A DNA stretch of 64,000 nucleotides. Source: a virus. A model generated the notes under the pieces. That model ran no database searches and was not told where the DNA came from. It saw only the letters and a program-made list of their open reading frames with translations. Position numbers and translations under genes: made by a program. The stretch covers positions 62,001-126,000 of IMG/VR virus record IMGVR_UViG_3300037258_000301, one strand, 5' to 3'. Positions 32,215 to 50,262 of the stretch are shown in pieces (position 1 is the first letter of the stretch; each line of letters opens with the position of its first letter).

Positions 32215-32520
32215 GTGTTGGAACAGGCCGTCTCTTCCGCTTTGTATCGACTCACCCTCCTGGAAAAGGCCCTTCACTCCACCGAATCGTGGTCCCTGTC
32301 CGTCGGTGCCGAGCGGGTACCGGCCACCCGCATCGTCACCGATGACGGCGTGACCTTTCGGGCCACGCTCTCCTCGCTGTGCGCGGCCGACCTGCCGATC
32401 GTGTCGTTGTGGTGCGGTGACGAACTCAGCGGCACTCGGGCACTCCCCTACGCGGATCACGGCGACGGCCTGGATGTCGAGTGGGGCATCAGCATGGGGA
32501 AAGGCGCGGTAGCGGCATGA
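32215..32520 (+). CDS. Small hypothetical protein before the helicase
   Basis: A 101-residue protein. GTG 32215 is chosen because AAGGAGAGG lies just upstream; an earlier in-frame GTG at 32197 has no ribosome site. The N-terminal helix is amphipathic (SSALYRLTLLEKAL), then the protein is beta-rich. It overlaps the helicase start by ATGA, so the two are coupled. The function is unknown; it may regulate or partner the helicase. Confidence 0.65.
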   Translation: MLEQAVSSALYRLTLLEKALHSTESWSLSVGAERVPATRIVTDDGVTFRATLSSLCAADLPIVSLWCGDELSGTRALPYADHGDGLDVEWGISMGKGAVAA

Positions 32521-34898
32521 CAACTCTGGAGCAAGCCCCGCCCACGACGGCGGGGCTTTTCCATACTCCCTGGTCGGGACTCCTCGACTTCCAGGCTGAA
32601 GGGGTCGCCCAGTGCTTCTACGGCACCGACCCCGAGAGCGGCGCCGACGGTGGCATGTTCTTGCTATTCGACACCGGCTGCCTCTATGGTGACGCCGAGA
32701 TCATGGTCAATCGAGGTGGGAAGGGGTTCCGGGTAGCGATCCGAGACGTTGTTCGCAAGTTCAACGGCGGCAAGACGCATGGCCCAAAGTGGGATCTGTC
32801 CATCCCCACCTTCGTCACACGAGAAGTTGATGGCGTTGTACGCCTGGGCCGTCTCACGGGCGCCTGGGAGAGCGGCGTCAAAATCACCTACACCGTCACT
32901 ACTGACACGGGTCGGACTATCCGTGCTACCGACGAACACCCCTTCCTGACCGAGCGCGGGTGGCTCCGTCTGGACCAACTCGTCGTGGGTGATGAAGTGC
33001 ATGTCCGAGGCTCTCAAGCAACCGGACACGCACGGAAGCCCAAGCCGCGTTATCGATCAACAGCTGGGCTTGTCCATCACCCTTACGCGACCCACCGCAG
33101 GGCGAAAAACAGTCCTTATCGCGTGGTAGAGCACCGCCTGGTGGCTGAGGCTGCGATGAATCACCTCGCCTATGAGAGGTACGTCGAGCGGCTCCGAATT
33201 GGACAAATTGACGGCCTGTGCTTCCTTGATCCTGACATTTACGCCGTACACCATATTGATCACAATCATCTCAACAACGAGCTGGTCAACCTCAAGATCA
33301 TGACACACTCGGAGCATCAAGCGCTCCATGCTGACGAGGGCAAGACCAACAGCGTCCTATACAAGATCGTGACGGAAAAGATCACTTCTGTGGAGCTCTT
33401 CGGAGAAGAGTCCACTTACGACCTTGCTGTTGAGGATGATCCACACAACTTCCTGGCCAACGGCTTCGTCGTACACAACACCGGTAAGACCGTCTGCTCG
33501 ATCGCGCTGGCCTGTCTCCTCATTGAGGACCAGAAGATCGACCGGGTCATTGTGGCCTGCGAGAAGAGCAAGCTCACCGACTGGGTGAGCGACTTTCAGA
33601 GCTTCTCCGAGTTGAGCGTCCGGAAGTACCACGGATCCAGTCGCAAGACGATGCTGACCAAGCACGACCCCCTGGTGGTGGTCAGCACCTACGAGACGTT
33701 GCGGGCCGACCTGATGGCCTTCCAGAAGAACCCCGGCAAGCGCGGTCGAGGTTCCCGCGTCGACGGGCCGCTGATGGACGATCTGGGGCTGCGATCCAGT
33801 CGCACCCTCTGGATCTTCGATGAGGTCACGAAGCTGAAGGGCCGTGGCAGCCAGATCCATCGGGCGTTCGACTACGCGCTGGGGCAGGCCCGCAAGCACA
33901 CCCATCAGCGCGTGATCGGTCTGACCGCGACGCCGGTCGAGCGGGACTTCGAGGACTTCTACAACCTCGGCCGCCTTGTCGTACCCAGCCGGATGCCTAC
34001 CGTCGAGGAGTTTGAGAAGCGCTACACGCGGGGCAAGGACATCCTCGGCCGCTACGTCTTCGTTCAGTACCGGGCCCGTGAGTTCGCCGCCCTGTTCTCT
34101 CCGGTGCTGATCCGTAAACGCAAGACTGATCCGGATGTGATCGAGCAGTTCCCGAAGATGGTCGAGCAGACCATCGGGGTCGACCTGCATCCGCAGCATC
34201 GCCAGTTCTACGACGCGACGCTGAGCCTGTTCGACGACCCGGAGGATCTTCGCGCGTTCGGTATCGCCCGGATGACCGCCGGCCACCCGTGCTCACACCT
34301 GCACGCCGACAACCCGGTCTCGCGCTCCATCGTGGAGACCGTCGGTGAGGAGTTTCTCCGTTCGGTGCCCTCCTCGAAGTCGATCGAGCTGATCAATCGG
34401 CTGACCCCCCTGGTCAAGGGACAGGGGGCGCAGGTGATCGTGTTCACCTTCTACGGCCGCTCCGTGCTCGTCGAGCTGGCCAAGGATCTGCGGGCAGCCG
34501 GGTTCACCGTGTCGACCTTCGCCGGAGGTATGACCACCGCCGAGCAGGACAAGGCCAAGACGGAGTTCACTTCCGGCGCCACCGAGGTGTTCCTGGCTTC
34601 TGACGCGGGCGCCCGGGGCCTGAACCTCGGCAACGCCTCCTACGTGATCGAGTTCGAGTCGGCGATGAACTACGCCATGCGCACCCAGCGGTTCAACCGG
34701 GCTAGCCGACTCTCTTCTACCGCGACCTCGGTGACCTGCTGGACGATGATCTGCCAGGCCACCATCGAGGTGCCCCTGTTCGAGCTGTGCATGCGTCGCA
34801 ACGCCGATCATGACATCGCGGTGGGGGACGAGGCTGACGACACCGCGTTCATCCCGGCCAGTGAGCGTCGCCGGATGCTGACGATTGGGCGCGGATGA
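32517..34898 (+). CDS. SF2/SNF2-type DNA helicase containing an intein
   Basis: A 793-residue precursor that would give a 526-residue helicase after splicing. The spliced P-loop reads DTG-TGKT, with the intein between the two halves. Helicase motifs follow: IFDEVTKLKG (Walker B), GLTATP (motif III), VIVFTFYGRS, ASDAGARGLNLG and QRFNRASR (motifs IV-VI). Domain order and the LTATP and GARGLNL motifs fit SNF2-like translocases used in phage DNA repair or replication restart. Its start overlaps the preceding stop. A terminator-like hairpin sits inside codons 6-15. Confidence 0.9.
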   Translation: MTTLEQAPPTTAGLFHTPWSGLLDFQAEGVAQCFYGTDPESGADGGMFLLFDTGCLYGDAEIMVNRGGKGFRVAIRDVVRKFNGGKTHGPKWDLSIPTFVTREVDGVVRLGRLTGAWESGVKITYTVTTDTGRTIRATDEHPFLTERGWLRLDQLVVGDEVHVRGSQATGHARKPKPRYRSTAGLVHHPYATHRRAKNSPYRVVEHRLVAEAAMNHLAYERYVERLRIGQIDGLCFLDPDIYAVHHIDHNHLNNELVNLKIMTHSEHQALHADEGKTNSVLYKIVTEKITSVELFGEESTYDLAVEDDPHNFLANGFVVHNTGKTVCSIALACLLIEDQKIDRVIVACEKSKLTDWVSDFQSFSELSVRKYHGSSRKTMLTKHDPLVVVSTYETLRADLMAFQKNPGKRGRGSRVDGPLMDDLGLRSSRTLWIFDEVTKLKGRGSQIHRAFDYALGQARKHTHQRVIGLTATPVERDFEDFYNLGRLVVPSRMPTVEEFEKRYTRGKDILGRYVFVQYRAREFAALFSPVLIRKRKTDPDVIEQFPKMVEQTIGVDLHPQHRQFYDATLSLFDDPEDLRAFGIARMTAGHPCSHLHADNPVSRSIVETVGEEFLRSVPSSKSIELINRLTPLVKGQGAQVIVFTFYGRSVLVELAKDLRAAGFTVSTFAGGMTTAEQDKAKTEFTSGATEVFLASDAGARGLNLGNASYVIEFESAMNYAMRTQRFNRASRLSSTATSVTCWTMICQATIEVPLFELCMRRNADHDIAVGDEADDTAFIPASERRRMLTIGRG
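32533..32560 (+). terminator. Terminator-like hairpin inside the helicase coding region
   Basis: AAGCCCCGCC (32533-32542) pairs perfectly with GGCGGGGCTT (32549-32558) across a 6-nt loop and is followed by TT. It covers codons 6-14 of the helicase. Translating ribosomes would melt it, so it could work as an attenuator that stops untranslated or late transcripts. Confidence 0.7.
32679..33479 (+). other. Intein with HNH homing domain, in the helicase P-loop
   Basis: A 267-residue intein. It begins at Cys (CLYGDAEIMV, the A-block) and ends with VVHN before a Thr at the +1 position; the B-block is near TDEHPFLTERGWLRL. The central region carries an HNH motif (HHIDHNHLNN, then THSEHQALH) and a basic stretch that could bind DNA. 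The terminal FVVHN matches a G-block. Insertion in a conserved nucleotide-binding loop is typical of inteins, which cannot be lost there without harming the host protein. Confidence 0.9.
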
Positions 34899-34919
34899 AC
34901 GCCACCAGGTCGTCTTCGG

Positions 34920-35183
34920 TCACTTTGCCTCCAGCGCGGTCGTGATGGCCCGCGCGGTCGGGCATGGCCACGGCTCGTCGCAGGTCGGACAGAACTCGCC
35001 TTCCCGTTCCTCGCCGTCGGCGTCGCGACCTTCCACATGCTCAGGCGAGTGCAGGTCGAGCACGGCGCGGAGCGCGGCGAATGCCGCCGAGGCGCATTCC
35101 TCGCGCAGGTACGCCTGGCCTTCGTAGCCGTAGGCGCCCGCGCCGTAGGCGTAGTCGTCGAGCAACTTCAGTGGATCACTCAT
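34920..35183 (-). CDS. Small acidic Cys-motif protein (last gene of leftward operon)
   Basis: An 87-residue protein. The ATG at 35183 overlaps the stop of the gene before it. The C-terminal half contains CPTCDEPWPC, a zinc-knuckle-like arrangement, within an acidic region (DADGEEREGE). It ends 21 nt from the convergent helicase stop, with no clear terminator between. Similar small Cys-containing proteins are common and uncharacterised in actinophages. The function is unknown. Confidence 0.6.
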   Translation of the reverse strand: MSDPLKLLDDYAYGAGAYGYEGQAYLREECASAAFAALRAVLDLHSPEHVEGRDADGEEREGEFCPTCDEPWPCPTARAITTALEAK

Positions 35184-35286
35184 CGGCTGCACCGTCCTTG
35201 TTGGCGAGGTAGGCGACGCGCGCCTCTGGAGTGTCGTCGATCCAGCCGCCGTTCGGGAGTGGACGAACGTAGTCGGGGTCGGTCAC
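35176..35286 (-). CDS. Very small coupled protein (36 residues)
   Basis: A GTG start at 35286 follows GGAGACCAC. The product is about 36 residues (MTDPDYVRPLPNGGWIDD onward), ending at TGA 35176. The start overlaps the preceding stop as GTGA, and the stop overlaps the next ATG (ATGAGTGA), so coupling supports it on both sides. It has no known motif. Confidence 0.6.
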   Translation of the reverse strand: MTDPDYVRPLPNGGWIDDTPEARVAYLANKDGAADE

Positions 35287-35522
35287 GTGGTCTCCTCAGT
35301 GGCGGGGAAGGGTGGTACCTCGATCTTCGTGACGCGGTACCCAAGGTTGACCAGGACGTTCAGGAAGGTACCCACACCATGCGCCTGCGTTGAGTGGCGC
35401 ATGAACTCGCGGTGCTCCCCCAGGGCGGTGTGGACGGCTTCGTACAGCTCGTCGAACTCACCGAGTTCCTGCCAGGGGATGTCATCGATATCGGGATCTG
35501 GGGCCTCGACGGGATCGGTCAT
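35283..35522 (-). CDS. Small acidic hypothetical protein
   Basis: A 79-residue protein. The ATG at 35522 overlaps the stop of its upstream neighbour by ATGA. The N-terminal 20 residues are strongly acidic (MTDPVEAPDPDIDDI). The rest is a helix-strand-helix (EFDELYEAVHTALGEHREF). Strong coupling to its neighbours suggests a shared process. The function is unknown; it could be a host-interacting or DNA-mimic-like protein. Confidence 0.6.
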   Translation of the reverse strand: MTDPVEAPDPDIDDIPWQELGEFDELYEAVHTALGEHREFMRHSTQAHGVGTFLNVLVNLGYRVTKIEVPPFPATEETT

Positions 35523-35950
35523 GACGACACCTTCTCCGCAGAGACGCCGAAGCCACGATCCACCTTGACCACGTAGCCACGCTTCTTCGCGCAGCACCCG
35601 CACAGCCGGATCTCTTCCTCGTCATCCTGCTCCCAGTTCACCCAGGCCAAGCCCTCGTTGTAGAACAGCACTCCGCAGTCGTCGCATCCTTGCTGGGAAA
35701 CCAGGTCGGAGACTCCCCCGAAGCGCCCGAGCCAGAACCACTCCAACGACTCACAGTGCTCGTCGTGCTCGTCCCACTCCTTGCGGATGTGTGGGAACAG
35801 CGTGTCGTAGCACCACGGTTCGACCTTCACGTAGTGCTTCGGCGCGATGCTCGGTCCAGGCCACCAGCCGAAGTAGTGGGCCCAGCGTTTGAACCACACC
35901 ACCGAGAGGTCATGTGGATTGGGACAGAAGTGGCAGTGACGTTCCTTCAC
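35519..35950 (-). CDS. Small zinc-binding hypothetical protein
   Basis: A 143-residue protein starting at GTG 35950, which overlaps the previous stop as GTGA. Cys pairs occur at CHFC (residues 6-9), CDDC (89-92) and CGCC (117-120), a likely pair of zinc sites. The interior is rich in Trp and aromatic residues (WFKRWAHYFGWW, LEWFWLG). I do not recognise the family. It could be a treble-clef nuclease-like protein or a host factor inhibitor. Confidence 0.6.
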   Translation of the reverse strand: MKERHCHFCPNPHDLSVVWFKRWAHYFGWWPGPSIAPKHYVKVEPWCYDTLFPHIRKEWDEHDEHCESLEWFWLGRFGGVSDLVSQQGCDDCGVLFYNEGLAWVNWEQDDEEEIRLCGCCAKKRGYVVKVDRGFGVSAEKVSS

Positions 35951-36441
35951 GACCCCTCCACCAAGGCCCGTAGGGCGGTTACGTACTTCTCCAGGCCCTC
36001 AGCGATCTCAGCGAGGGTCAGGGCCTCCTCCGGGGGATGGGGTACTCCCACCCGCGTTCGGGTCTTGGAGGCCAACTGGTGCCGCAAGGGGACAGCCTTC
36101 TGAGGTCGATCTCCTTCCTTCGGTGCCAGGTCGGGCATTTCGTTGGAGTAGGAGTTGATGTAGAAGGTCTTGCGGAAGATGGCGCCAGCCTCCGTCCCGA
36201 CGTAGATCGTGTCGTTCTGGCTCAACCAGACGTGCATCGGCTCGTTCTGGCGACCCCACCGGACCATGACCAGTTCCTGGTCGGGCTTCATGATCTTCCG
36301 CGCCTTCGCGATGACCTCTCGATCATGCGAGACGGACTTGATCATTTCTTCTCGGAAGGTCACCATCTTCTCGCTCGGTTGATAGATCATCATGATGATG
36401 TGCTGTAAGCCGGTGGACCCGGCGGGCGACCCGTCAGACAT
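35947..36441 (-). CDS. Hypothetical protein
   Basis: A 164-residue protein whose ATG 36441 overlaps the end of the preceding gene. Residues 50-100 are beta-rich and basic (KPDQELVMVRWGRQNEPMHV). The C-terminus is a helix. It carries no recognised motif, membrane segment or signal peptide. It is the fourth-longest gene in the coupled leftward set. The function is unknown. Confidence 0.6.
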   Translation of the reverse strand: MSDGSPAGSTGLQHIIMMIYQPSEKMVTFREEMIKSVSHDREVIAKARKIMKPDQELVMVRWGRQNEPMHVWLSQNDTIYVGTEAGAIFRKTFYINSYSNEMPDLAPKEGDRPQKAVPLRHQLASKTRTRVGVPHPPEEALTLAEIAEGLEKYVTALRALVEGS

Positions 36442-36688
36442 CGGTCTTCTTCATCGGCGTGTCGTTGGAAAATGCGGAGGAGAAGATCTGGAAGGTATCC
36501 GAGGAGGTCCTGGGCGCGATCGTGTCGAGGACCAGCACTACGGGTTCGCCGGGGGCGAAGCAGTCGGGCATGACGTCCCGAAGGATGCCGTCGCTGGTCT
36601 CGTCCCAATCCGGGGCAAGTAGCACCACCTCGTAGTCCAACCAGTCCGGATGGGCTTGCAGTTGAGCGAGCAGTTCATGGCCGTTCAC
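36434..36688 (-). CDS. Small acidic hypothetical protein
   Basis: An 84-residue protein. GTG 36688 is chosen over the ATG at 36724 because it forms a GTGA overlap with the previous stop and has GGAG 8 nt upstream. It is acidic (DWLDYEVVLLAPDWDETSD), with a beta-alpha-beta pattern. The function is unknown. Confidence 0.58.
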   Translation of the reverse strand: MNGHELLAQLQAHPDWLDYEVVLLAPDWDETSDGILRDVMPDCFAPGEPVVLVLDTIAPRTSSDTFQIFSSAFSNDTPMKKTDV

Positions 36689-37053
36689 GCGGAAGACTCC
36701 GTTCCGACCCCCTGAGGGGTCCACTGGGCAGTGTTCGGAAGAGTGGGGGGATCACTTTCTCGGGTCGCGCGCAGATCGTTCAGGAGATCTCTGACGAGCT
36801 GTTCGACCTGCTCGCGAAGAGCGAACGGCGGGAGAAGTCCCCGGGTAGAGACGACCGTGGGGTTGGTCTGCCCGTCCTTGCCGGTGAGCGGCTTACCGTC
36901 GATCATCAACTCGATGGCCATGAACCCGACGAATTGCCCGTCACCGGCCGGTTCTGGCAAGACTCCCAGGGTGACATCCCATGAGGTGTCCTCAGGCTCG
37001 GCCATCAGGATCTCTTCGACCCACTGGCTCCACTGTGCGGAGATACGTTGCAT
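36685..37053 (-). CDS. Hypothetical protein
   Basis: A 122-residue protein. It ends in a GTGA overlap with the next gene and starts 5 nt after the previous stop. Helical in part (REQVEQLVRDLLNDLRATRE) with a beta first half. No known motif. The start at ATG 37053 follows a weak ribosome site. The function is unknown. Confidence 0.58.
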   Translation of the reverse strand: MQRISAQWSQWVEEILMAEPEDTSWDVTLGVLPEPAGDGQFVGFMAIELMIDGKPLTGKDGQTNPTVVSTRGLLPPFALREQVEQLVRDLLNDLRATRESDPPTLPNTAQWTPQGVGTESSA

Positions 37054-37058
37054 GGATG

Positions 37059-37241
37059 TCAGTCTGGCACGACGTCGTAGAACTCATCGGGCGTGTTGGC
37101 GGTATCGGCGATGGCCTGAGCCATCACTCGGTTCATGACAGCACCGGGGAAGCCCGGTATGGGAATCAGCTCGTCAAGGACGACGGCGAGCTTCTTCTTC
37201 CGGTGCTGACGACGGACCTGTTTCGCCTGACGGTTACTCAT
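37059..37241 (-). CDS. Small basic hypothetical protein
   Basis: A 60-residue protein whose ATG at 37241 overlaps the stop of the preceding gene as ATGA. The first 24 residues are highly basic (RQAKQVRRQHRKKKL) and probably bind nucleic acid. The rest is a helix ending in an acidic tail. The charge split suggests an RNA- or DNA-contacting accessory factor; the function is unknown. Confidence 0.58.
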   Translation of the reverse strand: MSNRQAKQVRRQHRKKKLAVVLDELIPIPGFPGAVMNRVMAQAIADTANTPDEFYDVVPD

Positions 37242-38173
37242 TGTGTCTCCAGGGAGATGAGGGCACGACGGTAGGAGATCATGGGAGGATTCGGACGAAG
37301 TAGCATGCGGTTGAACCACCGAGCATGCATCCTCTTGCGGAAGTAGATGTCAGCGCAATGGGTGACGTTCCCGTAGGTACGGATGAGCTGCCGAACAGCC
37401 TTGCGCAGGAGATACCAGCGTTGAGGCACTGGTGGTGGCGCTGTGTCCAGGATGGCTTTACGCAGGACGGCGTTAGGCGTGATCCGGACACCCAGTTCGC
37501 CCTGAGGCGTGGACGGTACCTGCATGGCTAGGTGGAATAGCCGTAATGCCAGCTCCGAGGAGGGAATCAGGACCGCGTGTTCGGCAGCACTGCTTCGGGG
37601 GGACTGATAGGTCGTGACCAGGCTGGAAGGGGCATCGTCGGCAGTCCCGGTGGGGAATGCCACCGCTGTCTCACCGAGCTTGGCGTGGTAGTTGCTCTGA
37701 TTACCCGCCTTGAGCTTGGTCGTCGAGATCAGATACACCGGTCGATCTGCCGCGATGAACCCGCGTAGCTGCTCCTCCGCGATCTTGGCAGCATGGAACG
37801 GCTTGCCGTGTTCACATGTTCCCCGGATGCAGGTGGCGTGACGGGTTTGCGCATGTCCAGTTCGTGACGTTAGTGAGGTCAAGGTGATGGGATTCTCGCA
37901 CTTGGCTCCAGTTTTCCTGACCAAGGCACTAGCTGCGCTATGGATGATCCTTATGTCTCTTGCCCAGGAGTTCTGCTGTTCAGGAGTGAGAGAGTACTGG
38001 AATTCCGCATGCTCCCCCGAAGTCCTGCCAGCAAGATTGGAGGCTTCCCTCGCTCGGTCCACCCTCGCTGCGCTCGGGATTCCTCGCTCGGTCATCCTCC
38101 AATGACGACGAGCTGCGCTCGTGGGAGGGTTGGTCGACGAGCTGGATTTGCCATGAAGGCGCTGGTACGGCAC
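37238..38173 (-). CDS. Hypothetical protein, head of the coupled leftward operon
   Basis: A 311-residue protein. GTG 38173 has AAGGA 6 nt upstream. An ATG at 38095 has GGAGG touching it (too close), so the longer form is favoured. Cys residues lie at about 113 and 118 (CIRGTCEHGKPFHAA), with a His-rich neighbourhood that could bind zinc. The C-terminal third is basic with many Arg (RWYLLRKAVRQLIRTYGN). The first ~60 residues are coded by a repetitive, GC-rich stretch. I do not recognise the family. Confidence 0.6.
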   Translation of the reverse strand: MPYQRLHGKSSSSTNPPTSAARRHWRMTERGIPSAARVDRAREASNLAGRTSGEHAEFQYSLTPEQQNSWARDIRIIHSAASALVRKTGAKCENPITLTSLTSRTGHAQTRHATCIRGTCEHGKPFHAAKIAEEQLRGFIAADRPVYLISTTKLKAGNQSNYHAKLGETAVAFPTGTADDAPSSLVTTYQSPRSSAAEHAVLIPSSELALRLFHLAMQVPSTPQGELGVRITPNAVLRKAILDTAPPPVPQRWYLLRKAVRQLIRTYGNVTHCADIYFRKRMHARWFNRMLLRPNPPMISYRRALISLETQ

Positions 38174-38208
38174 AATCAGTCCTTAGTCCGATGTCGTTTT
38201 GGGAATTG

Positions 38209-38250
38209 ATGACCTTCAGCTCTGATCAGCTGGAGGTCATTCCCCTTTTT
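38209..38250 (+). terminator. Rightward terminator between leftward genes
   Basis: ATGACCTTCAGCT (38209-38221) pairs with AGCTGGAGGTCAT (38228-38240), with one G-U wobble and a 6-nt loop. TCCCCTTTTT follows on the plus strand. There is no rightward gene between 34898 and 39437, so its role may be to stop rightward (antisense) transcripts from the helicase operon. Confidence 0.6.
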
Positions 38251-38275
38251 GGGGACAAACCGGAACGGTAGCGGA

Positions 38276-39331
38276 TCAGGGTGTCCCTACGCCAGCCAGG
38301 GCTTGCTGGTAGGCCGCGACCCAGCGGTACGCGTTGGCCTCGGTGGTCCGACCCAGTACCCACTCCCGGGCTTCCTTGCCGAGCTTCTGCCGCGTCTCGG
38401 GTTCCTTGATCAGATGCGTGAGACACTCCGTCCACTCCCGGGGATTACCGGCCAACCAGTAGCCCCGGTGCCCCTCGTCGAAGGCCCGAAGATAGGGCCC
38501 CACCGGGGAGGCGATCACGGGGATACCCAGGGCGCCGAGTTCCAGCAGCCTGATGTCCGATTTGCTCTCGTTGAACGGGAACGGGTAGAGCGGGGCCAGC
38601 CCGATGTCGAAGTTGATCGCCCGGTAGTAGTTCTCCACCCCGTTCACCCAGGCCGTGTGGTGGGTCCGCCCTCGGATCGAGGCCACTCGCTCGGTGTAGT
38701 CGACCGGACAGATGCAGTGGAAGATCGTCTGCGGGTGGGCCTGGATGACCCGCTTCACCGAACGAGCGCACTCACCGAAGTCCCGGTTGTGGGTGGAGCT
38801 ACCCGCCCAGCCGATCACCAGGTCGTCCTCTCCGATGACCTGTCGGCCTTCGGCGTCGGCTACGGCGTGGGAAGGAACCAGCTCCGTCAGGAACTGCGGG
38901 ACGGTGTTGGGTAGCACCACCACCGGGACCGAGGCGTGCTCGGTCACCACGTTGGCCAGGTGCTCGGTGGACACCGTGATCAGGTCGGCGACCGCTACGT
39001 TCTCCTTCAGTCGTCGGAGCCGCTCCGGGTCGAAGAAGGCGTGGGCGTCGTTGGACCGGTCGATGTTCCACAGATCGTCGTCGAGATCCATGACCAGGGC
39101 GAAGTCTCGCCGGCCATGGCGAGCCAGGGCTTGCCACAGGGCGGTCGGGGACGGTTCGACGAGTCGCTGCCCGACCAGGACATTCAGACCCTGCTCCTGG
39201 CAATTCTCCAGGGTGGGCATTGAGGTGCCGTGCGTGCAGGCGTGGCCGATCAGGGACATCCGGGACAGGGGAAGATAGCCCCGGTAGTACCCAGGACCGT
39301 GCATGTCGGCCAGACAGAAGTGAACGCGCAT
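38276..39331 (-). CDS. GT-B type glycosyltransferase (family 4-like)
   Basis: A 351-residue enzyme. The start at 39331 (MRVHFCLADMHGPGYY) opens with the N-terminal strand typical of GT-B proteins; an earlier in-frame start is implausible. The region VVVLPNTVPQFLTEL and the later INFDIGLAPLYPFPFNESKS followed by RLLELGALGIPVIAS match GT4/GT1-like donor-binding motifs (E-x7-E: Glu in the 'F..SKSDIRLLELGALG' helix). It could glycosylate virion proteins or a small host molecule; phage virion glycosylation is known in some mycobacteriophages. Substrate unknown. Confidence 0.85.
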   Translation of the reverse strand: MRVHFCLADMHGPGYYRGYLPLSRMSLIGHACTHGTSMPTLENCQEQGLNVLVGQRLVEPSPTALWQALARHGRRDFALVMDLDDDLWNIDRSNDAHAFFDPERLRRLKENVAVADLITVSTEHLANVVTEHASVPVVVLPNTVPQFLTELVPSHAVADAEGRQVIGEDDLVIGWAGSSTHNRDFGECARSVKRVIQAHPQTIFHCICPVDYTERVASIRGRTHHTAWVNGVENYYRAINFDIGLAPLYPFPFNESKSDIRLLELGALGIPVIASPVGPYLRAFDEGHRGYWLAGNPREWTECLTHLIKEPETRQKLGKEAREWVLGRTTEANAYRWVAAYQQALAGVGTP

Positions 39332-39369
39332 GGTTCGCAGCGTCTCACGCGAACATGCCACTCACCATC

Positions 39370-39398
39370 TTGGTCGACTCAGGGCAATGACGGACACT
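39370..39398 (+). promoter_or_regulatory. Candidate promoter with TCAG spacer element
   Basis: TTGGTC (39370-39375) and GACACT (39393-39398) are 17 nt apart. TCAG at 39379-39382 lies 10 nt before the -10. It drives the gene at 39437, in the divergent region opposite the glycosyltransferase. It aligns with the elements at 40388 and 43299 (CTTGGT-N4-TCAG-N10). Confidence 0.6.
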
Positions 39399-39436
39399 GG
39401 TCAGCAGAGAGATCACTACCCATCCTGGAGCGCGTC

Positions 39437-39943
39437 ATGTACGACCTCGACCAATTCGACGACGGGGACAACCCCGAGTTCAGATACCCCCTGTTCACCC
39501 ACGAGCAGCTCATGTCGGTGCCGACCGAGCCGATCCCCACGCAGTCCCTTCCGACTGTGCGAATGTCACCACCTCTCGCCCCGGCGATGGAGGTTTACAC
39601 CGGTCAGGACGCTCAGCTTTCCACTCGTGAGCTGATGTGGGGCCTGATGGTGCTGGGGACGATTGCGCCACTCGTGGGGGTGCTCGCCGATGGCTTCCTG
39701 GGCTTCCTCGTCGGCACCCTCGTGGGCTTCGCGCTGGGGAGCGGTGCCACCATCGCCCGTTACCTGCGGATCAAAGCCATCCGGGCCGGCCGTACCGACC
39801 TGGAGTTCAGTCAGGCCGAGGTCAAGACGGAGACCGTCCTGGGGGTTCTCGTGCTCGTCTTCAGCATCCTGTCCGTGGCCAGTTATGTCGAACGCCGCCA
39901 TGTCCGCCTGATCGCTCGTGAGATCCAGCGTGGTGGCCGGTGA
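39437..39943 (+). CDS. Membrane protein
   Basis: A 168-residue protein. ATG 39437 is chosen because it follows a GGAG and the upstream in-frame stretch is outside the promoter. Two hydrophobic segments span residues ~70-108 (LMVLGTIAPLVGVLADGFLG, then LVGTLVGFALGSGATIA), and another lies at ~132-150 (TVLGVLVLVFSILSVASYV). The C-terminus is basic. It is coupled to the next gene by a GTGA overlap. The function is unknown; it may help in lysis or membrane remodelling. Confidence 0.65.
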   Translation: MYDLDQFDDGDNPEFRYPLFTHEQLMSVPTEPIPTQSLPTVRMSPPLAPAMEVYTGQDAQLSTRELMWGLMVLGTIAPLVGVLADGFLGFLVGTLVGFALGSGATIARYLRIKAIRAGRTDLEFSQAEVKTETVLGVLVLVFSILSVASYVERRHVRLIAREIQRGGR

Positions 39944-40383
39944 CCGCGCGCATGAGGTTCGTGCTGTGTACCGGTGGAATATTCCTGCTGGTACTGGCGG
40001 CGGTCGTACTCGCTCTGTTGCTGCCGATCCCTGCTGCCACCCCGAGCACGCCCCCGCTGGCTCAGACCGCGACACCCACACCGACCCCGACCAGCACTTG
40101 GGGGCTCATCGAAGATCTCGACACGGCGGGGCTTCCGCTGTTGAGTACGAAGGCCACCGTGACCGAGTATCAGCGGGAGACCTACACCGAGGCCGCCGTG
40201 GCCAAGGCGCCGTGCACGGTGGCCGCCGAGGGCGGTTCATGGTCGATCATTCTCAGTCTGGACGAAGAGCTGCCGGTGGGGCCTACTCAATACGGTCAGA
40301 TGGTGGCGATCGGCATCCGGGACGAGTGTCCGCGCTATCTGGCCGTGGTCCCGCCGGACTGGCTACCGTCTCCGACGTCGTGA
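39940..40383 (+). CDS. Signal-anchored hypothetical protein
   Basis: A 147-residue protein. GTG 39940 overlaps the previous stop. Residues 7-29 form a strong hydrophobic segment (RFVLCTGGIFLLVLAAVVLA), followed by a Pro/Thr-rich linker, which suggests an outside-facing, anchored protein. The remainder is a small beta domain with Cys at about 89 and 129 that could form a disulfide. The function is unknown; superinfection exclusion and lysis roles are possible. Confidence 0.6.
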   Translation: MTARMRFVLCTGGIFLLVLAAVVLALLLPIPAATPSTPPLAQTATPTPTPTSTWGLIEDLDTAGLPLLSTKATVTEYQRETYTEAAVAKAPCTVAAEGGSWSIILSLDEELPVGPTQYGQMVAIGIRDECPRYLAVVPPDWLPSPTS

Positions 40384-40387
40384 CCCC

Positions 40388-40416
40388 TTGGTGGTGTCAG
40401 GGTGGGTTGGTAGTCT
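40388..40416 (+). promoter_or_regulatory. Candidate promoter with TCAG spacer element
   Basis: TTGGTG (40388-40393), spacer 17, TAGTCT (40411-40416); TCAG at 40397-40400 lies 10 nt before the -10. It would drive the DinG-like gene at 40463. It overlaps the stop of the gene before it. Confidence 0.6.
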
Positions 40417-40462
40417 CTGGTGTGTCACCAACTCCTCATCCCCAAACCAAGGAGTGATCCCC

Positions 40463-42466
40463 GTGTCCTGGACCGACGCGCAAGAGGCATTCCGGACCAG
40501 CCTCCCGGGTTACGAAAACCGGGTCGAGCAGACGCGGCTCGCGCAAACCATCGAGAAGGCCCTGGCCAACGGCAAGCACCTGACCGCGCAGGCCGGCACT
40601 GGTGTCGGCAAGAGCTACGCCTGTCTCGTTCCGGCCATCGACCATGCTCAGGTCACTGGCTTGCCGGTCATGGTGGCCACCGAGACGAAGGCATTGCAGG
40701 CGCAATACGCCAAAAAGGATGTTCCGTGGCTCCAGGAGCACCTGGGTGTGCCGTTCACCGCCGCGCTACTCAAGGGCCGCAGTAACTACCTGTGCCGTGC
40801 TCGCCTGGCCGAGGCCACCCCTGCTGAGGTGTTCAACATCGAGGCGCTCCGGGAAGAGGTCGCCTCGGTGCCGGACATGAATGGCGACATGGAAGACCTG
40901 ATCACCGAGGTTGACCTGGCCCAGCGCCGGGCGTTGACCATGAGTTCCGAAGAATGCCCCGGCAAGTCCGACTGCCCCTTCGGCGGTACGTGTTTCGCTG
41001 AGCAGGCCAAGGCGCGAGCCAAGACCGCCGATGTCGTGATCATCAACCATCACCTGCTCGCCACCGAGGCCGCCCTGCGCGAGGCAACCCACACCGATGA
41101 GATGCCCGACGGCATCAGTTTCCTCCCCGATTTCAGTGGACTGATCATCGACGAGGCGCACGGGTTCCAGGACGTGGCCACCGACATGCTCGGCGGCGAG
41201 TTCGTCGAGCGTCAGCTCCTGCGCTTCGCCTCCGACGCCGGGTCGCTGCTGGGAGACCGGCAGCTCACCAAGGGTCTGGAAGCCTGCGCGCACAGCCTGT
41301 TCCTGAACCTGGGGAACTGGATGACGCAGGAGAACCGTCGCAACCGCAGCCGGGACACCTCGATGGCATTGCCGCACTCGGTGATCGAGGAGTATGCCGA
41401 CGAGTTCGTCATGGTCACCGATGAAGTGCGGTTGATCAGGCAGCACATCAAAAAGATGGACACCTTCGGTAACGACCAGGCTGCCGCCCGCAAGAAGCGC
41501 ATGATCAAGCGGGCCGAGAACCTGTTCAATCGCATGGCCAGGTTCGTCACCGCGTCCTCCGATGACCTGGTTCGCTGGATCGAGCTGGCTTCTGATCGCC
41601 GTGGCGACACTCTGAAGTTGCACTTCGCGCCCCTGGACGTGTCTCCGGTCCTGGAGCAGTGGTTGTGGTCTCGGCACACCACCGTGCTGATGTCCGCCAC
41701 CCTGGCCGTCGGCAGCGACTTCGGCTTCATCACCAAGCAGCTCGGCGTGCCCGACCCGATCACCTTCGACGCCGGTACCCCGTTCGACTACCCGAATCAG
41801 GCCGCGTTCTTCTGCCCGCAGACCAAGTGCGACCCCACTTCCGGTAGCGAATGGCAGGCTCGGGTGGCCATGGTCATTCGCAAGCTGGTCGCGGCGGCCG
41901 ATGGCCGGGCACTGATCCTGTTCACCTCGCGCCGGGAACTGGAGGCCGCCTGGGTGGCCTGTGCCGAGACGATCGAAGACCTGGGCATCACCGTGCACAA
42001 GCAGATCGAGGGTGGCAACAACCGGGCGTTGGGCGAGGAGTTCAAGACCGATGAGCGGTCCGTCCTGTTCGCGTTGAAGTCGTTCATGACCGGCTTCGAC
42101 GTGCAGGGCAGCGCCCTGGAGCTGGTCATCCTGAACAAGCTGCCCTTCGCCAACCCCGGTGACATCATCCTCAAGGCCCGCTGTGACGCCCTGGACCGCG
42201 AGGTGGAGCGCACCCGCCAGAACAAGTGGGCGAACGGCTCTTTCTCGAAGATCACCGTCCCGTCGATGACCCTGGTCCTGCTCCAGGCGTTCGGGCGCCT
42301 GATCCGCACCAAGAACGATCGTGGCGTCGTGGTGCTCCTGGATGACCGGATCTACACCAAGAACTACGGCAAGAAGATTCGGGCCGCGATGCCTCCGGCG
42401 CAGGTACTGACCACCCTGGCCGATACCGAGGACTACCTGAGCGCCTTGCGCACTACGGTAGGGTGA
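40463..42466 (+). CDS. DinG/XPD-type SF2 DNA helicase with Fe-S cluster
   Basis: A 667-residue helicase. Walker A is GTGVGKS (residues 45-51) and motif II is DEAH (230-233). Four cysteines at about 111, 165, 171 and 177 (RxxC...ECPGKSDCPFGGTC) match the Fe-S cluster of XPD/DinG helicases, followed by VIINHHLL. The C-terminal motifs LMSATLAVGSD, SFMTGFDVQG and QAFGRLIRTKNDRGVVVLLD are also present. GTG 40463 is set by AAGGAG 8 nt upstream. DinG helicases move 5'-3' and resolve DNA damage structures and R-loops, useful during phage replication or for countering host defences. Confidence 0.92.
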   Translation: MSWTDAQEAFRTSLPGYENRVEQTRLAQTIEKALANGKHLTAQAGTGVGKSYACLVPAIDHAQVTGLPVMVATETKALQAQYAKKDVPWLQEHLGVPFTAALLKGRSNYLCRARLAEATPAEVFNIEALREEVASVPDMNGDMEDLITEVDLAQRRALTMSSEECPGKSDCPFGGTCFAEQAKARAKTADVVIINHHLLATEAALREATHTDEMPDGISFLPDFSGLIIDEAHGFQDVATDMLGGEFVERQLLRFASDAGSLLGDRQLTKGLEACAHSLFLNLGNWMTQENRRNRSRDTSMALPHSVIEEYADEFVMVTDEVRLIRQHIKKMDTFGNDQAAARKKRMIKRAENLFNRMARFVTASSDDLVRWIELASDRRGDTLKLHFAPLDVSPVLEQWLWSRHTTVLMSATLAVGSDFGFITKQLGVPDPITFDAGTPFDYPNQAAFFCPQTKCDPTSGSEWQARVAMVIRKLVAAADGRALILFTSRRELEAAWVACAETIEDLGITVHKQIEGGNNRALGEEFKTDERSVLFALKSFMTGFDVQGSALELVILNKLPFANPGDIILKARCDALDREVERTRQNKWANGSFSKITVPSMTLVLLQAFGRLIRTKNDRGVVVLLDDRIYTKNYGKKIRAAMPPAQVLTTLADTEDYLSALRTTVG

Positions 42467-43298: not shown

Positions 43299-43327
43299 TT
43301 GGTGTTGTCAGAGTGACTCGCTACACT
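43299..43327 (+). promoter_or_regulatory. Candidate promoter with TCAG spacer element
   Basis: TTGGTG (43299-43304), spacer 17, TACACT (43322-43327). The sequence TTGGTGTTGTCAG is nearly identical to the element at 40388. TCAG (43308-43311) ends 10 nt before the -10. It would drive the gene at 43367. Confidence 0.65.
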
Positions 43328-43366
43328 GAGCCAGTCACCAGCTCCACCCCCATCACGGAGGTCATC

Positions 43367-44089
43367 GTGCCCGGCACCTTCATCGAAAAATCCCAGGTCG
43401 CGTCCATCGCGGGCGGTCTGCTCCGCAAAACCGGCGCCACCGCGTCCCAGCTGGTCAAGGCCATTGCCGTGTTCAAGAGCGACCTGGCCACGCGGCCCGT
43501 CACCCCGTTGCCGGACCGCAAGATCCTGGAGCTGCCCGCAGAGCAGGCCAAGGCCCTGGGGATGCTGGCCCGGATCAGCGCGTCTCTGCCGGTGCCGCTC
43601 AAGCGCCGGGCGCTGAACGAGACCGAGATGGCCCAGTACATCGAAGCTCGGGAGGCGTTCCTTCTGGCCAAGAAGGCTCTGGAGCGTTTCGACGAGAACA
43701 CCAAGGCCGTCTTGCACAACCACTTCGACGCCAAGGTCGAGGCCAACGGCTCGATCGACGACTCCACGCCCTTCCACGCGAAGAACGGCTGGTTGTGTGT
43801 CGAGGACAAGAGCAGCGGCGCGGCCGGCGGCGAGAAGAACAAGATCACCCGCGAGCTGTCCGGGGGCGGCCCGTCCTTCGGTGAATCGCACCTCGCCGCC
43901 ATGCGCGACGACGGTGTCATCACCGAGCGGGAGTACCAGTCGCTTACCCGCATCCCGCGCTACCGCGAGCTGAACGACGACGCGGTGATCGCCAAGGTCG
44001 CTGCCGACTCGGAGTTTGCCGCGCGGGTCCTGGAGTACTCCACCGAGATCGCGCCGACCCCCTCGATCCAGCTCCGGCCGGCGAAGTGA
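43367..44089 (+). CDS. Hypothetical protein
   Basis: A 240-residue protein. GTG 43367 is set by GGAGG 5 nt upstream and lies 40 nt after the promoter. It is alpha-helical (LNETEMAQYIEAREAFLLAK) with a C-terminal region rich in Glu and Arg. No motif was recognised. It overlaps the next gene by GTGA. The function is unknown. Confidence 0.6.
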   Translation: MPGTFIEKSQVASIAGGLLRKTGATASQLVKAIAVFKSDLATRPVTPLPDRKILELPAEQAKALGMLARISASLPVPLKRRALNETEMAQYIEAREAFLLAKKALERFDENTKAVLHNHFDAKVEANGSIDDSTPFHAKNGWLCVEDKSSGAAGGEKNKITRELSGGGPSFGESHLAAMRDDGVITEREYQSLTRIPRYRELNDDAVIAKVAADSEFAARVLEYSTEIAPTPSIQLRPAK

Positions 44090-47908: not shown

Positions 47909-49237
47909 ATGCGAGAATCCGAACGCGTCCTACTCTCCCACCTCACCGAGACGGCGTCGTTGGAGCTGCTCTCCGCCGAGGGCTTCGCGACCGAGCAGGG
48001 CTGCGAGGTGCTCTCCTCGGAGATCGTTCGGTCGATCGTGCGTTGGGCGATCGCGTTGTACTTCGAGTCCGGCCGCGACGTGCCGATCACTCGACGCATG
48101 ATCGAGGAGACCTGGGAGCACGAGCTGGAGCAGCTCGACGTCCAGATCGACGACGAGCATGAGTTGGAGCCGGTCGAGTGGGTGATCGATGACCTACGGG
48201 CCGCCTACGCCGGCAAGATCGCTCATGACTTCGCCACGAAGCTCGCCGTGGCCGTCGGCGAGGAAGCCCATGCCCCCGATCGCGTGAAGGTGCTGTTGGA
48301 ATACAGCCACGAGTTGTTCGCTATCACCCGCACGCTGGTGTCTCGTCGGCAGGAGGCAGACCTGGGGCAGGGCGTGGACATGGCCCTCACGAGCTACTTC
48401 CAGCGGGTTGAGGCCAACACCCATCTGGAGGGACTGACCTTCGGCCTGCCCTCCATCGACAACCACACCAAAGGTATCCACCCTGGCGAGGTGGCCGTGT
48501 TCGCGGCCCCCTCGGGTGAGGGCAAATCCTGGGTGGGACTCAAGGCCACCTTCGAGGAATGGCGCCGGCACCGTAAGTCAATCCTGTTCACCCTGGAGAA
48601 CTCTCTGCCCATGACGTTCGACCGGCTCGTCTGCGTGGGTGCGGGAGTGCGGTATGAGGCATGGCAGGAAGGGTCTTGTACCGAGCCGGAGATCTTGCGG
48701 GTTAAGCAACTCCTGGAAGAAATGCGCGACACTGACTGGTGCCCGCTGGTCATCATGCCCGGCCGGAACGAGCGCACCATGACCGCGATGGTGCGCAAGA
48801 CGTTCACCGAAAACGCTGTCTCGCTGATCATCGACCAGCTCTCCTTCGTTGAAGAGACCATCAAGGGTGCCAAGCAGCGCAACAGGTGGGGCGCTTTTGG
48901 CGACATGATGCACGAGTTGCATGACGAGGTGGCCGAGGGCAAGGAAAAGCTCTCGGCTTTCGTTTTGCATCAGATCAACCGCAAGGGCATCGAGGAGGCA
49001 GCCAAGACCGGCCGCTTCCACATGGAGCATTTGGCCGAGGCCAGTGAGATCGAACGCACTGCCGACTTCATTTATGCGGCCTACCGCTCCGATTTCGACA
49101 AGCAGAACAATCTCGCCACCTGGCAGCAACTCAAAGGTCGTCGGGTACGACCACATGATGACTGGCCGATGGTGTGGGACCTTGCGCGCGGTCACATCGC
49201 CGTACGTGGCGACGAACCTTCTCGGAGGGCGGCATGA
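47909..49237 (+). CDS. DnaB-like replicative DNA helicase
   Basis: A 442-residue helicase of the RecA-fold superfamily 4. Walker A is APSGEGKS (200-207); Walker B is LIIDQ (Asp309). FTLENSLPMTFDRL is the conserved H1a-type region, and HQINRKGIEEAAKTG is the H3/H4 motif with an arginine finger candidate. The N-terminal domain is helical, as in DnaB. GGAGG precedes ATG. It is flanked by the loader and the primase, so helicase, loader and primase form one unit. Confidence 0.88.
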   Translation: MRESERVLLSHLTETASLELLSAEGFATEQGCEVLSSEIVRSIVRWAIALYFESGRDVPITRRMIEETWEHELEQLDVQIDDEHELEPVEWVIDDLRAAYAGKIAHDFATKLAVAVGEEAHAPDRVKVLLEYSHELFAITRTLVSRRQEADLGQGVDMALTSYFQRVEANTHLEGLTFGLPSIDNHTKGIHPGEVAVFAAPSGEGKSWVGLKATFEEWRRHRKSILFTLENSLPMTFDRLVCVGAGVRYEAWQEGSCTEPEILRVKQLLEEMRDTDWCPLVIMPGRNERTMTAMVRKTFTENAVSLIIDQLSFVEETIKGAKQRNRWGAFGDMMHELHDEVAEGKEKLSAFVLHQINRKGIEEAAKTGRFHMEHLAEASEIERTADFIYAAYRSDFDKQNNLATWQQLKGRRVRPHDDWPMVWDLARGHIAVRGDEPSRRAA

Positions 49238-50262
49238 GCACCTTCATTCAGGGGCGCCTGCCGACCACGCAGAAGAAGATGCTTTGTCGCGATCTGCTCG
49301 CCGAGTTCGGGGCCCGCAACATCACCGAGCACTCCAACGGCGAACTGATCCACTCTTGCTGTCTGCCGTTCGGTCAGCATCGCAACGGCGACAGCAACCC
49401 CTCGGCTTCGTTGAACTATCAGAAGCTCACCTACTCATGTCTCGGATGTGGAAACTCGGGCGGCCTGTTGTGGTTCCTGGCCGTATGCCGGGGCGAGGAA
49501 CCCCTGGAGGTGCGCAAGTGGCTGGAGAACGCCACCGGCACCGAGGGTGGGGTGCTCGACCTCCAGAATCTGCTTCGACTTATCGACGAAATCTTCGAGC
49601 CCAAAACTTCGGTCTACCAACCGATGCCAAAGTACGACCCGTCGATATTGGACGCATGGCGGCAACCCAACTTCCATCCTCTCCTCACTGAGGGCGCGCC
49701 CGATCTCGATATCGAAGGATGGCACATGCCCGAAGAGACATTGCGTCACTTTGATATTGGTTACGATCTCACCACCGACCGCATCACCATCCCAGTGTGG
49801 TGGAAGGGGAAACTGGTCGGTTGGCAGGCCCGTGCGGTCTGTGACGATGAGGAGAACAAGTACAAGTCCTCTCCTGAGCTACCGCGTCGGTCCATTATGT
49901 ACAACTACAGCCAACGTGACCACTACATCGTCGTGGAGAGCCCAAAGTCCGTGCTGCGCCATTATCATCACCAGCCGACCATCGCGGCTACCTTCGGCGC
50001 CAAGGTGGAGCAGGCACAGCAGGCTCTCCTGCACAGTGCCGGCCGGGTCGTGTTGTGGTTCGACAACGACCCGGCGGGCTGGTCGGCCACCCGCAAGGTT
50101 GGTAATCGGCTGACCGCCTACACCTCGGTCTACGCCGTGCTCAGCCCCTGGAAAGGAGGACCGGAGAATCTTCCCGATGGCGTCATGGATCAGCTCGTCG
50201 AGCAGGCAGTGCCCTACGCTGTGTGGCACTTACCAGATCAACTGCGACGTTGGAGACCCTGA
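49234..50262 (+). CDS. DnaG-type DNA primase
   Basis: A 342-residue primase. A CHC2-type zinc finger uses Cys42/43, His49, Cys69 and Cys72 (SCLGCGNSGG). A TOPRIM domain follows: YIVVESPKS (Glu) then VVLWFDNDPAG (the DxD). This lays down RNA primers for the phage polymerase. ATG 49234 overlaps the helicase stop (GGCATGAGC). It is shorter than typical bacterial DnaG and lacks a clear C-terminal helicase-binding domain. Confidence 0.88.
   Translation: MSTFIQGRLPTTQKKMLCRDLLAEFGARNITEHSNGELIHSCCLPFGQHRNGDSNPSASLNYQKLTYSCLGCGNSGGLLWFLAVCRGEEPLEVRKWLENATGTEGGVLDLQNLLRLIDEIFEPKTSVYQPMPKYDPSILDAWRQPNFHPLLTEGAPDLDIEGWHMPEETLRHFDIGYDLTTDRITIPVWWKGKLVGWQARAVCDDEENKYKSSPELPRRSIMYNYSQRDHYIVVESPKSVLRHYHHQPTIAATFGAKVEQAQQALLHSAGRVVLWFDNDPAGWSATRKVGNRLTAYTSVYAVLSPWKGGPENLPDGVMDQLVEQAVPYAVWHLPDQLRRWRP

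What the first reader, a model, noticed from the sequence alone, without database searches (positions are those of the whole stretch)
34920..38173. Nine coupled leftward genes of unknown function, an accessory operon between two rightward modules
Nine genes (34920, 35176, 35283, 35519, 35947, 36434, 36685, 37059 and 37238 as left ends) lie on the minus strand. All but one junction has an ATGA/GTGA or longer overlap; the 37053/37059 junction has a 5-nt gap. None has a recognised function. Several are strongly acidic, three carry Cys pairs and one is a 60-residue basic peptide. Small, tightly coupled, mostly acidic or Cys-rich proteins in a strand-inverted island are typical of phage host-takeover or anti-defence islands. 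The 36-residue gene at 35176 is easy to miss. Because the products are made in near-fixed ratios, they may form a complex or act in one pathway. This is the strongest candidate here for an undescribed system.
Basis: partly seen in the sequence, partly recalled or inferred. Interest (0 to 1): 0.8.

Follow-up and report, generated by a model that had tools for sequence, protein, structure and literature searches.

The report
Mosaic accessory operon in uncultured phage
A large uncultured phage, probably of an actinobacterium, carries nine small genes packed head to tail on the reverse strand; they are real, but they look like a patchwork of individually acquired accessory genes at a spot where related phages carry other cargo or none, and not like a new multi-protein machine.

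Summary
Nine leftward ORFs tile 34920-38173; seven of eight junctions overlap. A coupled chain this long never arose in 200 simulated sequences, and an independent gene caller recovers g1-g8 exactly. g9 is real as an open frame but has an uncertain start and foreign composition. Comparison with 11 related virus records shows that the locus is a variable site just after an SNF2-type helicase. Three relatives join the helicase directly to the next backbone gene. Three others (G002, G008, G011) have a g7 homologue there, read with or directly behind the helicase; in two of these (G002, G008) the gene after it is leftward cargo. Three genes of the operon have traceable relatives, and each has a different history: g7 is the helicase's ancestral neighbour, g1 has a paralogue in the phage's own small-gene array beside DUF6221, and g4 resembles a lone Cys-rich gene of Streptomyces phages. 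The other six have no detectable relatives. Acidity is no greater than in the phage's other small genes. Best reading: a mosaic, moron-like leftward operon of independently acting small proteins, a known kind. Host-takeover or counter-defence roles are plausible for single genes but untested.

The parts
34920..35183 (-). g1: 87-aa acidic protein with a CPTC...WPCPT motif; paralogue in the same phage, homologue in G001
   Evidence: 49% and 42% identical to G000:16048-16299 (+) and G001:42436-42690 (-), 25 invariant columns; both homologues sit near DUF6221 genes (PF19730)
35176..35286 (-). g2: 36-aa ORF
   Evidence: recovered by codon-usage caller, score 0.29 per codon; Pfam, PHROGs, PADLOC and NCBIfam empty; no match in the relatives except a chance-level one
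35283..35522 (-). g3: 79-aa acidic protein (the ORF's longest start, 35603, is unlikely)
   Evidence: caller picks ATG 35522 with ATGA overlap; no phage match
35519..35950 (-). g4: 143-aa Cys/Trp-rich protein with three CxxC pairs, probably zinc-binding
   Evidence: 39% over 72 aa to Streptomyces phage Kradal gp13 with CxxC and CxCCAK conserved; profile finds only Kradal outside the window's record among 13 records
35947..36441 (-). g5: 164-aa orphan protein
   Evidence: no relatives in phages or viral contigs; single-sequence model unreliable, pLDDT 44
36434..36688 (-). g6: 84-aa acidic protein, GTGA overlap with g7
   Evidence: no relatives
36685..37053 (-). g7: 122-aa acidic protein; member of a family that often follows the SNF2 helicase in related phages
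   Evidence: HMM built from relatives only hits this ORF alone among all window ORFs, E 4.7e-8, 28.5 bits against 6.3 for the best of 2000 shuffles; homologues in G001, G002, G007, G008, G011
37059..37241 (-). g8: 60-aa basic protein (pI 9.4), ATGA overlap with g9
   Evidence: no phage match
37238..38095 (-). g9: basic protein (pI about 10.5), start uncertain (ATG 38095, GTG 38062 or GTG 38173), composition outlier, probably a recent import
   Evidence: GC3 0.67, near-zero coding score, N-terminal part without coding signal; no relatives in phages, plasmids or the genome-contig collection
38048..38122 (.). short palindrome-rich repeats (GACCGAGCGAGG, GAGCGCAGCGAG, ACGAGCGCAGCTCGT) around the 5' end of g9
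   Evidence: occur nowhere else in the held parts of this phage
38208..38241 (.). 14-bp hairpin between g9 and the glycosyltransferase; T-tail on the + strand only
   Evidence: MFE -29.5 / -26.4 kcal/mol, z -4.7 / -5.2; terminator-like on +
38276..39331 (-). GT4-type glycosyltransferase, tenth leftward gene, probably a separate unit
   Evidence: phrog_7162 1.6e-50; 38% to Streptomyces phage Zuko gp5
32517..34898 (+). SNF2-type helicase with intein; left border of the variable site
   Evidence: SNF2-rel_dom 4.5e-20, Intein_splicing 2.9e-14, HNH_3 6.5e-6
40463..42466 (+). DinG/XPD-like helicase; in G008 it lies in the same place and orientation
   Evidence: Helicase_C_2 2e-35
43313..44089 (+). 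conserved backbone gene that directly follows the SNF2 helicase in G001, G006 and G007; right border of the variable site

Best explanation
The nine genes are a leftward accessory operon that was assembled piece by piece at a variable cargo site on the 3' side of the phage's SNF2-type helicase gene. Inferred working: one transcript starts in the 38.1-38.2 kb gap upstream of g9, runs against the rightward backbone transcription, and is translated by stop-start coupling. The products act as separate small accessory proteins, not as one machine. g7 is the best-anchored part: in relatives it is read with or directly behind the helicase, so it probably still serves the helicase or DNA metabolism. 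g4 is probably a zinc-binding protein. g1 belongs to a family carried in the phage's small-gene arrays near DUF6221. g9 is a recent import of unknown source. Shown: gene content, coupling, variable site, separate histories of g1, g4 and g7. Inferred: the single transcript, the promoter position, and that some members modulate the host as such arrays do in other actinophages.
For: Variable site: the helicase is followed directly by the w43313 homologue in G001 (24 nt), G006 (79 nt) and G007 (78 nt). In G008 the same interval holds a g7 homologue, a 109-aa leftward ORF, a 167-aa ORF and the DinG/XPD helicase. In G002 a g7 homologue and then a leftward Thg1 gene follow the helicase. In G011 two g7-like genes follow it. 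Different histories: g7, g1, g4, g9. The other genes are absent from the relatives and, where searched, from phage records. A published comparator exists: phage Wildcat has 29 leftward small genes of unknown function, expressed early, 12 of them toxic to the host when expressed (PMC7474061).
Against: Seven of eight overlapping junctions is a little tighter than the phage's average, which could mean selection for co-expression. The closest relatives are only about 50% identical in core proteins, so co-travel among close relatives could not be tested. Six of nine genes have no relatives, so their independence is inferred from absence. The g7 homology rests on 18-29% identity, and three of the relatives' g7 genes were found with a profile that contained the window's own g7. 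No expression data.
Confidence: 0.68

Rival explanations
1. Host-takeover or counter-defence island: the operon is expressed early and several of its small proteins bind and inhibit host enzymes or defence proteins.
For: Small, acidic and Cys-rich orphan proteins in a strand-inverted cluster. Comparable leftward arrays of actinophages are expressed early and rich in host-toxic genes (PMC7474061). Compatible with the best explanation; it is a claim about function, not origin.
Against: No match to any named family; PADLOC covers defence, not counter-defence. Acidity equals the phage's other small genes. g7, the best-anchored member, is tied to a helicase rather than to host takeover.
Confidence: 0.4
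2. A dedicated multi-protein system: the nine products form a complex or a single pathway, with fixed ratios set by coupling.
For: Nine genes, 7 of 8 junctions overlapping, more than chance.
Against: Homologues of g1, g4 and g7 occur without the others and in different neighbourhoods; half of the neighbouring small gene pairs of this phage overlap anyway; no recognised family in any of the nine.
Confidence: 0.06
3. Decaying cargo: part of the operon, g9 above all, is non-functional or a pseudogene in transit.
For: g9 has near-background codon scores, no detectable relatives, and an uncertain start overlapping short repeats unique to this spot.
Against: g9 keeps an open frame of 285-311 codons, and g1-g8 have codon usage like the rest of the phage.
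Confidence: 0.15

Closest known systems
Leftward early small-gene array of mycobacteriophage Wildcat (genes 143-171; PMC7474061)
   Same: run of small leftward genes of unknown function in an actinobacterial phage
   Different: Wildcat's array lies at the genome end, many of its genes are separated by 80-100 bp with motifs, and early timing and toxicity were measured; here the array is mid-genome, overlapping and untested
DUF6221-containing small-gene arrays of this phage and its relative (G000 about 11-16.3 kb; G001 about 40.3-44.3 kb)
   Same: small coupled genes, including a g1 homologue that overlaps its upstream neighbour by 8 nt, as g1 does here
   Different: the island has no DUF6221 gene and lies about 80 kb away on the opposite strand
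Helicase-coupled g7 family of G002, G008 and G011
   Same: homologous to g7 and at the same backbone site
   Different: there read on the helicase's strand, overlapping it by 4 nt (G002, G008) or just behind it (G011); here on the opposite strand, 1.8 kb away, inside the leftward operon
Streptomyces phage Kradal/Satis gp13
   Same: g4-like Cys pattern (CxxC and CxCCAK) over 72 aa, 39% identity
   Different: found in another neighbourhood (DNA-binding protein, O-methyltransferase, upstream of terminase), shorter, without the other genes that could be searched

Membership tests
Accessory (moron-like) cargo locus of tailed phages | present or absent, or replaced by other cargo, at a fixed backbone junction in relatives | tested here: met
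   empty in G001, G006 and G007; other content in G002, G008 and G011
Accessory (moron-like) cargo locus of tailed phages | not required for phage growth | not testable with these tools
   needs gene deletion
Conserved multi-gene system | components co-occur in related genomes | tested here: not met
   only single genes recur, apart from one another; only distant relatives were available
Anti-defence or host-takeover island | contains or neighbours known counter-defence genes | tested here: inconclusive
   Pfam, PHROGs and NCBIfam give no named match for the nine; PADLOC empty but it models defence systems
Anti-defence or host-takeover island | early expression | not testable with these tools
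   needs RNA-seq; no consensus promoter found on the minus strand upstream of g9
Helicase-associated g7 family | sequence homology with position next to the SNF2 helicase | tested here: met
   homology: HMM E 4.7e-8 against shuffled control; position: three relatives have it directly 3' of the helicase, while the window's copy is near it but on the opposite strand
Known virion or metabolic families | match to a curated family | tested here: not met
   no match above curated cut-offs for any of the nine; PHROG matches only weak and of unknown function

The most novel reading that the evidence does not exclude
The nine proteins act together as an undescribed helicase-linked counter-defence or host-modifying complex: g7, moved from helicase-coupled expression to the inverted operon, links an SNF2-type helicase to eight accessory factors.
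Probability: 0.05. Interest if true: 0.7.

Novelty: new member of a known kind. Interest (0 to 1): 0.25.

Why it matters
It shows a recurrent cargo site (3' of an SNF2 helicase) in an otherwise uncharacterised lineage of roughly 150-kb phages, probably of actinobacteria, and defines one gene family (g7) conserved with that helicase. That gives a concrete place to look for accessory genes in relatives. As a new system it does not stand up.

Tried and rejected
Nucleotide search of the island in phage records gave nothing. Scans of viral contigs with g4, g5 and g6 found no relatives; the scan with g7 found only G008 again. Genome-contig scans with g9 and g1 found none. Single-sequence AlphaFold2 models of g5 (pLDDT 44) and g9 (pLDDT 32) are unusable, so no fold search was run. 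A resemblance of g6 to a small G008 protein (36633-36899) was tested and rejected. Rfam found no RNA in 34500-39500. The idea that the acidic make-up marks a special island was tested against the phage's other small genes and rejected. A single insertion of the whole 34.9-43.3 kb stretch was rejected because G008 has the DinG/XPD helicase and a g7 homologue in the same interval.

Full report
What was checked. The window is bases 62001-126000 of a 151,624-base virus record. All nine ORFs are present. With the best-supported starts seven of eight junctions overlap, and the 37053/37059 junction has the stated 5-nt gap. A codon-usage caller trained on this phage finds g1-g8 at exactly these coordinates but only the 3' 166 codons of g9. 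The longest coupled leftward chain in the region is 3,285 summed bases in nine genes; 200 simulated sequences with the same dinucleotide tendencies reached at most 1,554, and the plus strand 582. The run holds ten leftward genes if the glycosyltransferase at 38276-39331 is counted, but 100-180 nt and a strong hairpin separate it from g9. By gene number it is the largest leftward block in the parts of this record that were called.

What is not special. Five of nine proteins have pI below 5.5; so do 67% of 129 other small genes of this phage. Two (g1, g4) have CxxC pairs, against 13 of 129. Of 100 neighbouring small rightward gene pairs, 49 overlap, so 7 of 8 is only mildly unusual.

Relatives. 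The phage has no nucleotide match to the island and its borders in 50,697 phage records. Scans with the DnaE and helicase proteins found related viral contigs; eleven records (G001-G011) were used. G001 and G007, both about 150 kb, share DnaE at 51-52% identity and gene order.

The site. In G001, G006 and G007 the SNF2-type helicase gene is followed after 24, 79 and 78 nt by the homologue of the gene at window 43313. In the window 8.4 kb lie between the two. In G008 the same interval holds a g7 homologue, a leftward 109-aa ORF, a 167-aa ORF and the DinG/XPD helicase in the same orientation as in the window. In G002 the helicase is followed by a g7 homologue and a leftward Thg1 gene. In G011 it is followed by two g7-like genes. 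The place is thus a variable cargo site, and leftward cargo right after g7 was seen in two other phages.

The genes. g7: tblastn of window g7 found the G008 homologue (5.6e-5), and a profile found members in G001, G002, G007, G008 and G011. An HMM built without the window's g7 hits it alone among all window ORFs (E 4.7e-8, 28.5 bits; best of 2000 shuffles 6.3 bits). In G002 and G008 the gene overlaps the helicase by 4 nt; in G011 it starts 2 nt after it. The G001, G007 and G011 members were first found with a profile containing window g7, so the HMM test is not fully independent; the shared position is independent support. g1: 49% and 42% identical to a gene elsewhere in the same phage and to one in G001. 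Both lie in arrays of small coupled genes with DUF6221 members. g4: 39% over 72 aa to Streptomyces phage Kradal gp13, with Cys positions kept, in an unrelated neighbourhood. g9: composition outlier, without relatives in phages, plasmids or prokaryote genomes at the sensitivity used, its 5' part overlapping repeats that occur nowhere else in the held parts of this phage. g2, g3, g5, g6 and g8: no relatives found; g2 was searched only against the family libraries and the fetched records.

Interpretation. The three traceable genes have three different histories, and none of their relatives was found with the other genes of the island. This argues against one co-evolved system and for a mosaic accessory operon. 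How it works is inferred: one leftward transcript, coupled translation, separate products; g7 probably linked to the helicase, g4 and perhaps g1 zinc-binding. Leftward small-gene arrays of this sort are known; in phage Wildcat such an array is expressed early and 12 of its 29 genes are toxic to the host (PMC7474061). Host modulation by some members is thus plausible but untested here. Host: the nearest named matches for g4 and the glycosyltransferase are Streptomyces phages, which suggests an actinobacterial host; this is an inference.

Limits. The relatives are distant, so co-travel at short range could not be tested; no structure could be predicted reliably; there are no expression data; absence of relatives is absence at the sensitivity used.

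Noticed in passing
window 32517-34898: The SNF2-type helicase carries an intein (Intein_splicing 2.9e-14, HNH_3 6.5e-6) inserted at its Walker A motif; the helicases of G001, G002, G006, G007 and G008 lack it.
   Followed up: partly
L008 5388-7739 (G001) against window 49234-50262: The G001 primase looks interrupted by an intein-like insertion that the window's primase lacks; seen by eye in the translation only.
   Followed up: no
L014 12145-12837: A phage-borne Thg1 (tRNA-His guanylyltransferase, Pfam 9.2e-27) lies leftward just after the g7-like gene in G002.
   Followed up: partly
window 38048-38122: Short palindrome-rich repeats of a host-genome look occur only here in the held parts of the phage, at the 5' end of g9.
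   Followed up: partly
window 38208-38241: Strong hairpin with a T-tail on the + strand although no rightward gene precedes it within 3 kb; it might stop antisense read-through from the helicase.
   Followed up: partly
L002 16415-18366: A leftward pair, one gene with a replication-protein look and one with a GntR-regulator look, beside the DUF6221/g1-paralogue array; identified by eye only.
   Followed up: no
L015 2740-6974 (G001) and G007 37165-41260: In G001 and G007 the DinG/XPD helicase lies leftward upstream of the SNF2 helicase with genes that look DnaC- and DnaD-like and a small excisionase-like gene (by eye), so this block has been rearranged between lineages.
   Followed up: partly
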